Source: a virus. From it: a stretch of 64,000 nt of DNA. How positions within the stretch are numbered: the stretch's first letter is position 1; every line of letters starts with the position of its first letter. Under the pieces are notes generated by a model. It did not search any database, had not been told where the DNA came from, and was given only the letters and a program-made list of their open reading frames with translations. Shown here piece after piece: positions 4,323 through 4,610 of the stretch. The DNA is taken from positions 1 to 64,000 of IMG/VR virus record IMGVR_UViG_3300028837_003833; one strand, 5' to 3'. Made by a program: the position numbers and the translations under genes.

Positions 4323-4461
4323 AAAAAGCTGGTATAAGTCGCAAGTGCTAATTTTGTGCGATTACGAGGGTTTGAACCTCGAAAAGCGAGAACCAGAATC
4401 TCGTGCCTTATCCGATTAGGCGATAATCAATGTAAGCATCTACAGTAATTACCAGCTTTTT
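4323..4461 (-). ncRNA. Y RNA-like hairpin carrying a tRNA-like module (CUG)
   Basis: The outer stem AAAAGCTGGT/ACCAGCTTTT is perfect and differs from its neighbours' stems while keeping pairing. The conserved inner elements ATTACTGTAGATGCTTACA and TTAGCACTTGCGACTTAT are identical to those of the hairpin at 4024-4164. Between them is a tRNA-like module (4358-4430). About 25-30 bases separate it from each neighbouring hairpin, as expected for a tandem array cut from one transcript or for separate short genes. Confidence 0.82.
4358..4430 (-). tRNA. tRNA-like module, anticodon loop CUG (Gln-like)
   Basis: The minus strand forms a D arm GCC..GGC with a TAATCGGATAA loop (G18-G19-like GG), an anticodon arm CGAGA-TTCTGGT-TCTCG and a perfect T arm CGAGG-TTCAAAC-CCTCG. 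The acceptor stem is reduced: GATTA/TAATC gives five Watson-Crick pairs plus one G-U, and there is no CCA at the expected place. A truncated acceptor that merges into another helix is the signature of a Y-RNA tRNA mimic rather than a translating tRNA. The anticodon assignment assumes a standard 7-base loop. Confidence 0.5.
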
Positions 4462-4485
4462 AATTTCAATGATCTTAATAAAAGT

Positions 4486-4610
4486 GGTTGAAATTACATA
4501 AGTCGTGTATGCTAATTTGATGGATTTGAACCACCGACCCATTCGTTATCAGCGAATTGCTCTTACCAACTGAGCTAATGTAAGCCTTCACCGTAATTGT
4601 AATTTCAACT
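4486..4610 (-). ncRNA. Y RNA-like hairpin carrying a tRNA-Ile-like module
   Basis: The outer stem GTTGAAATTAC/GTAATTTCAAC is a perfect 11-bp helix. The flanking elements ATTACGGTGAAGGCTTACA and TTAGCATACACGACTTAT are variants of those in the other hairpins. The changed bases partly compensate (for example G-C where the others have A-T), while TTAC, GCTTACA, TTAGCA and GACTTAT are kept. The tRNA-like module occupies 4512-4584. This is the first member in transcription order, and the 90 bases upstream (4611-4702) are almost pure A/T with no clear promoter. Confidence 0.8.
4512..4584 (-). tRNA. tRNA-like module, anticodon GAU (Ile-like), eroded acceptor
   Basis: The minus strand has a textbook D arm (TTAGCTCAGTTGGTAAGAGC). 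The anticodon arm is ATTCG-CTGATAA-CGAAT, with the classical Ile GAU loop, and the T arm is GGTGG-TTCAAAT-CCATC. The acceptor strands CTTACAT and AAATTAG pair at only four of seven positions and there is no CCA, so the fold ends in the Ro-type helix instead. It is a clear tRNA derivative but unlikely to be aminoacylated as it stands. Confidence 0.5.

What the first reader, a model, noticed from the sequence alone, without database searches (positions are those of the whole stretch)
4323..4610. Two further tRNA-like modules with different anticodons and degraded acceptors
The hairpins at 4323-4461 and 4486-4610 carry CUG- and GAU-type anticodon loops with perfect D and T arms but weak acceptors. 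Different anticodons on a common Ro-binding frame suggest repeated capture of different tRNAs, not duplication of one Y RNA. The modules might act as decoys for tRNA-cutting defences or tRNA-modifying enzymes; that use is a guess.
Basis: inference. Interest (0 to 1): 0.75.

Follow-up and report, generated by a model that had tools for sequence, protein, structure and literature searches.

The report
Phage Y RNAs carrying whole tRNA bodies
The two elements are Y RNAs, small RNAs that partner the Ro60-like protein this phage encodes; each has an almost complete tRNA fused into it, and the family (phages and cyanobacteria) keeps the tRNA shape while letting the anticodon drift, so the RNA seems to be used for its tRNA shape and not for reading codons.

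Summary
Observation largely right. On the minus strand, 4322-4462 and 4484-4612 each hold a closing stem, a Ro-type internal loop, an inner stem and a colinear tRNA body (CUG and GAU; Rfam tRNA 43.2 and 52.4 bits). Acceptors differ: 6/7 pairs in the CUG module, 4/7 in the GAU module. A third tRNA-type Y RNA (4024-4164), a non-tRNA Y RNA (about 4189-4308) and a Ro60-like protein (1514-3088; AlphaFold model matches Ro60/TROVE first) complete the locus. Relatives: 18 further viral rsr loci and at least 80 bacterial loci, mostly Cyanobacteria.

Interpretation partly right. With the anticodon masked the CUG body groups with tRNA-Gln: a separate capture. The "Cys" and "Ile" bodies group together beside tRNA-Ile: probably one lineage with changed anticodons. 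Across 119 such Y RNAs, near-identical modules often carry different anticodons; the triplet diverges at about the synonymous rate of rsr while the rest is strongly conserved, and 23% carry anticodons rare in bacteria. Differing anticodons are therefore weak evidence of capture and argue against isotype-specific decoys. Likely role: a tRNA-shaped docking arm of a Ro60-Y RNP. Unlike YrlA, the tRNA is not permuted and keeps its anticodon arm.

The parts
4484..4612 (-). Y RNA with colinear tRNA module, GAU anticodon (Ile-like body)
4511..4584 (-). tRNA body of that Y RNA; acceptor 4/7 pairs, D, anticodon and T arms complete
4322..4462 (-). Y RNA with colinear tRNA module, CUG anticodon (tRNA-Gln body)
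4357..4430 (-). tRNA body of that Y RNA; acceptor 6/7 pairs; nearest to tRNA-Gln with the anticodon masked
4024..4164 (-). third Y RNA with colinear tRNA module, GCA anticodon, 7/7 acceptor followed by GCCA; body not Cys-like
4189..4308 (-). fourth Y-frame RNA without tRNA module (long hairpin inside the frame); matched by a similar RNA in L002 at about 4750-4875
   Evidence: L002 counterpart read by eye
1514..3088 (-). Ro60-like protein (Rsr family, helical repeats plus vWA domain; MIDAS residues D345, S347, S349, T407, D431 invariant in 31 relatives)
3153..3413 (-). small conserved ORF between the Y array and rsr, unnamed; similar small ORFs near rsr in relatives
   Evidence: counterparts seen by eye

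Best explanation
These are the tRNA-bearing Y RNAs of a phage-encoded Ro60-like RNP. Shown by sequence: a Ro60-family gene and, upstream on the same strand, four Y-frame RNAs, three of which hold a colinear tRNA body joined to the frame at its acceptor end. Inferred: the frame (outer stem, internal loop AAUUAC/GACUU, inner stem) binds the Ro60-like ring, and the tRNA body is an effector or tether domain that docks a tRNA-recognising protein (in the studied relatives PNPase, or tRNA modification enzymes) through its overall L-shape and elbow. Decoding is not used: the anticodon triplet is free to drift while the D, T and anticodon stems, U33 and purine 37 are kept. Bodies were taken from tRNAs at least twice (Gln, Ile-like); duplication of frames plus anticodon drift made the rest.
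For: Protein: AlphaFold model (pLDDT 82) has TROVE/Ro60 structures as ranks 1-13; profile hit to human RO60 E 1.1e-8; PHROG 850 RNA-binding protein. RNA frame: strong covariation in phage copies and in 32 cyanobacterial copies (97.4% of cells paired, 18 pairs with changes on both sides, no shuffle as high). Linkage: framed colinear tRNAs at 60 of 80 bacterial and 10 of 18 viral rsr loci by motif. Shape not decoding: U33 in 108/119, purine 37 in 114/119, anticodons of 35 kinds; triplet divergence tracks fourfold rsr sites (0.28 at d4 0.22; 0.50 at d4 0.38) while the rest of the module is 0.04-0.05; 27/119 odd anticodons (A34 other than ACG, or stop-reading) against 9/436 in unframed tRNAs, p 1e-12. 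Known precedent: D. radiodurans Rsr-Y-PNPase, and YrlA modified by DusA and TruB (PMC8394870, PMC7790460).
Against: No expression, binding or partner data exist for this family. If only the elbow mattered, the anticodon arm could be lost, as in YrlA; here it is kept and covaries, so something may still read the anticodon arm's shape. The Pfam TROVE model does not hit the protein. Pairs in the rate test are not independent and the survey is motif-based.
Confidence: 0.62

Rival explanations
1. Decoys or sponges for anticodon nucleases or other tRNA-targeting defences: the Y RNA offers an anticodon stem-loop on a stable Ro RNP and occupies or inhibits the nuclease.
For: Anticodon arm with 7-nt loop, U33 and purine 37 is kept and its stem covaries; many different triplets are on offer; rsr/Y loci often lie beside tRNA arrays (unframed tRNA density 2.6 per 10 kb in bacterial and viral loci, against 60 tRNA matches in a 7.6 Mb genome); competitive inhibition of an anticodon nuclease by YrlA was proposed, and YrlA was not cut by it (PMC7790460).
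Against: The triplet evolves at about, not clearly above, the neutral rate, so no sign of tracking a target; many triplets match no usual bacterial tRNA; the idea is untested here.
Confidence: 0.2
2. Each different anticodon marks a separate capture of that tRNA isotype.
For: The Gln body is tRNA-Gln-like with the anticodon masked; the Ile body is close to tRNA-Ile.
Against: The Cys body is not Cys-like and is sister to L002's UAU module; anticodons change within one module lineage; nearest-neighbour isotype accuracy with masked anticodon is only 257/446.
Confidence: 0.12
3. Precursors of working tRNAs whose leader and trailer happen to form a Ro-binding stem.
For: The Cys module has a 7/7 acceptor followed by GCCA; the Gln acceptor is 6/7; no other tRNA gene was found in the 135 kb record.
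Against: The Ile acceptor is 4/7 and overlaps the frame; the Cys module has G where tRNA-Cys needs U73 (own knowledge); family-wide free anticodons and stop-reading triplets; cyanobacterial acceptors are only about 5 bp.
Confidence: 0.04
4. Decaying tRNA genes or chance folding.
For: Weak Ile acceptor.
Against: Covariation in frame and arms, conservation across phages and Cyanobacteria beside rsr.
Confidence: 0.02

Closest known systems
YrlA bacterial Y RNA (Salmonella, PDB 6CU1)
   Same: Small RNA next to rsr, Ro-binding stem plus a tRNA-like domain with D and T arms.
   Different: YrlA is a circularly permuted tRNA mimic with D, T and acceptor-like arms (PMC11472068, PMC8394870). Here the tRNA is colinear, keeps its anticodon arm and is joined at the acceptor end. 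YrlA-order elements occur as separate RNAs at 40 of 80 bacterial relatives.
Deinococcus radiodurans Rsr/Y RNA/PNPase (RYPER)
   Same: Ro60 family protein with Y RNA as ring partner and tether.
   Different: PNPase binding is untested here; the protein is too distant for the Pfam TROVE model.
Ro60 of Thermus phage phiLo (PDB 9L5Y) and jumbo-phage TROVE proteins (PMC7824862)
   Same: Phage-encoded Ro60 family proteins (9L5Y is rank 9 in the fold search).
   Different: No Y RNA with a colinear tRNA was found described for them in the papers that could be read.
tRNA genes of phages
   Same: Cloverleaf with D, anticodon and T arms.
   Different: Enclosed in a Ro frame; anticodon not conserved; acceptor shortened or degraded in part of the family.

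Membership tests
Y RNA (Ro60 partner) | Encoded next to a Ro60 family gene | tested here: met
Y RNA (Ro60 partner) | Long stem from paired 5' and 3' ends with a conserved internal loop | tested here: met
Y RNA (Ro60 partner) | Binds Ro60 | not testable with these tools
   needs a binding assay
YrlA | tRNA-like domain circularly permuted | tested here: not met
   colinear; permutation of YrlA from PMC11472068
YrlA | D, T and acceptor-like arms, no separate anticodon arm | tested here: not met
   7-nt anticodon loop and covarying stem, (YrlA arms from PMC8394870)
YrlA | Substrate of DusA and TruB | not testable with these tools
   D-loop GG and T-loop UUCRA present, no assay
Functional tRNA gene | 7-bp acceptor and CCA or free 3' end | tested here: not met
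   Ile 4/7, Gln 6/7 without CCA, both inside a closing stem
Functional tRNA gene | Anticodon conserved among orthologues | tested here: not met
   for the family; window/L002 pairs GAU-UCU and GCA-UAU
Ro60/Rsr protein | Helical-repeat ring plus vWA fold | tested here: met
Ro60/Rsr protein | Pfam TROVE match | tested here: not met
   homology instead

The most novel reading that the evidence does not exclude
A wide family of Ro60 RNPs in phages and Cyanobacteria wires tRNA bodies to one Ro frame in several ways (at the acceptor end, inside the D-loop, permuted at the variable loop) and uses the kept anticodon arm with freely varying triplets as general bait or sensor for enzymes that attack or modify tRNA anticodon arms.
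Probability: 0.17. Interest if true: 0.85.

Novelty: new variant of a known kind. Interest (0 to 1): 0.62.

Why it matters
Known tRNA-mimicking Y RNAs (YrlA) are permuted and lack an anticodon arm. A colinear, anticodon-bearing form with a drifting triplet gives a natural experiment: selection kept the tRNA shape and gave up decoding, which narrows down what the unknown partner of the tRNA-like domain reads. It also warns annotation pipelines: ARAGORN and Rfam report these Y RNAs as ordinary tRNA genes, some with anticodons such as AUU, AAG or UUA.

Tried and rejected
Anticodon as isotype label: rejected after masking it. Diversifying selection on the anticodon: considered because near-identical modules differ mainly there, but divergence is about that of fourfold sites, so relaxed constraint suffices. 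Chance or tRNA decay: rejected by covariation. A DNA-pattern search of viral contigs gave only the window phage, L002 and coincidental matches. RtcB ligase link: found in 1 of 12 phage records only. No Rfam family besides tRNA and no YrlA hit in the window or, at gathering score, in eight relatives. The key YrlA papers (PMC4201824, PMC6281776, PMC6047535, PMC10870794) are not held.

Full report
What is there. The window is part of a 135.5 kb phage record. On the minus strand three Rfam-level tRNA bodies lie at 4511-4584 (GAU), 4357-4430 (CUG) and 4060-4131 (GCA). They are the only tRNA matches in the record. Each sits inside the same frame: a closing stem of 10-15 bp, a 5' element AAUUACnGURnnnGCUUACAUU and a 3' element UUAGCA...GACUU. 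The closing stems differ in sequence but pair; on the five phage copies (window 3, L002 2) 95.2% of cells are paired and 19 of 33 pairs change on both sides, with no shuffle as high. A fourth frame at about 4189-4308 holds a plain hairpin instead of a tRNA. The finding's two modules are therefore real. The acceptor is poor in the GAU module (3 of 7 pairs non-standard) but nearly complete in the CUG module (1 of 7).

The partner protein. Downstream at 1514-3088 lies a 524 aa protein. Pfam names only a weak vWA domain, but a profile of 31 relatives hits human RO60 at E 1.1e-8, PHROG 850 is an RNA-binding protein family, and the AlphaFold model (mean pLDDT 82) has Ro60/TROVE structures as its first 13 matches, including D. 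radiodurans Rsr and the Ro60 of Thermus phage phiLo. MIDAS residues are invariant. So the locus is an rsr-Y RNA locus.

Relatives. Related rsr genes were found in 19 viral loci (L035 is a near-identical copy of the window phage) and 172 bacterial stretches, of which 80 were fetched, mostly Cyanobacteria. A motif survey found over 120 acceptor-linked Y RNAs with colinear tRNA bodies beside them; 119 passed cleaning. The cyanobacterial form has an outer stem, an inner stem, a 5-bp acceptor and complete D, anticodon and T arms, with strong covariation (97.4% of cells paired). Forty of 80 bacterial loci also hold a separate element in the YrlA order T arm - acceptor hairpin - D arm, mostly without an anticodon arm. 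In some phages the Ro frame sits inside the D-loop of a tRNA or encloses a permuted tRNA; ARAGORN finds the tRNA only after the hairpin is taken out or the sequence is rotated.

Capture or duplication? With the anticodon masked, the CUG body is nearest to tRNA-Gln (normalised alignment scores 0.52 and 0.40) and far from the other window modules (0.06-0.10). A tree joins it to a Rhizobium phage tRNA-Gln with support 100/92. The 'Cys' body is nearest to L002's UAU Y module (0.545; branch 100/96) and poor against tRNA-Cys (0.28); the GAU body sits with it beside tRNA-Ile (97/91). So at least two origins are likely, Gln and Ile-like, and one lineage has changed anticodon. Limits: masked nearest-neighbour isotype accuracy is 257/446, the tree has 56 columns, and holding the three window modules together is not rejected (AU p 0.11; all five phage modules p 0.059).

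The anticodon is free. In the 119 modules U33 is kept in 108 and a purine at 37 in 114, but 35 different anticodons occur. Of 19 pairs at least 96% identical outside the anticodon arm, 68% differ in anticodon. Comparing orthologous modules with fourfold-degenerate sites of the neighbouring rsr gene, positions 34-36 diverge about as fast as neutral sites (0.28 at d4 0.22; 0.50 at d4 0.38; 0.43 at d4 0.62), the rest of the module 0.04-0.05. The pairs are not independent, so this is a description, not a formal test. Anticodons with A34 (other than ACG) or reading stop codons make up 27/119 of the modules against 9/436 of unframed tRNAs (p 1e-12). The two phage orthologue pairs show the same: GAU against UCU, and GCA against UAU (L002).

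How it most likely works. Shown: frame, tRNA body, Ro60-like gene, selection on shape, none visible on the triplet. Inferred from studied relatives: Y RNA binds Rsr by its stem, and its tRNA-like domain is recognised by proteins that know tRNAs (PNPase tethering; DusA and TruB modification; PMC8394870, PMC7790460). I take the tRNA body to be such a docking arm, read by shape. The kept anticodon arm leaves room for a partner that reads the arm's fold; a decoy role against anticodon nucleases is the main rival, and for YrlA it has been proposed in print (PMC7790460). The frequent tRNA arrays beside rsr fit a link to tRNA biology but do not choose between the two.

Compared with the known. Y RNAs with tRNA-like domains in bacteria and phages are known (from memory: Chen et al. 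2014, not held, report likely Y RNAs near Ro60 in more than 250 bacterial and phage species). The solved YrlA domain is a circularly permuted tRNA mimic (PMC11472068). The present modules are colinear, acceptor-linked and anticodon-bearing, so they fail two YrlA features and are best called a new variant of tRNA-mimicking Y RNAs. I could not read the main YrlA papers, so an earlier description of this form cannot be excluded.

Noticed in passing
L002:4708-4732 and 4890-4914: Two CRISPR-repeat-like sequences GTCGCTGAAAAGCG(T/C)GGATTGAAAC flank the non-tRNA Y RNA of the related phage; they recall solo repeats used as RNA anti-CRISPRs. Absent from the window.
   Followed up: partly
L003:3783-3915, L040:7150-7290, L042:6390-6530: Ro-frame hairpins inserted in the D-loop of otherwise complete tRNAs in huge phages; tRNA found by ARAGORN only after the hairpin is left out.
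   Followed up: partly
L037:7350-7450, L043:6980-7090 and 7320-7450, L044:7038-7139: Y frames that enclose circularly permuted tRNAs, several with an anticodon arm, and in L043 with the acceptor strand plus ACCA joined to the 5' strand.
   Followed up: partly
L038, L040, L047, L048, L050, L052 and bacterial L082, L087, L095, L097, L122, L124, L132: rsr/Y loci beside arrays of 8 to 28 ordinary tRNA genes.
   Followed up: partly
window 3153-3413 (-): Small ORF with equivalents near rsr in relatives, ending VRADTVFG (VRPDAVFG-like in relatives); looks ubiquitin-like by eye, no family match.
   Followed up: no
window 16016-20698 (-) and 23492-27739 (-): Long ORFs that look like a DNA polymerase A and a helicase interrupted by inteins (by eye).
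   Followed up: no
window 9845-10741 (-): ParB-like protein, best NCBIfam model PRTRC_parB but under its cut-off.
   Followed up: no
MN988521.1 (L216) 10001-20044: Rhizobium phage RHph_TM30, source of the tRNA-Gln nearest to the CUG module, has a TROVE gene beside its tRNA array.
   Followed up: no
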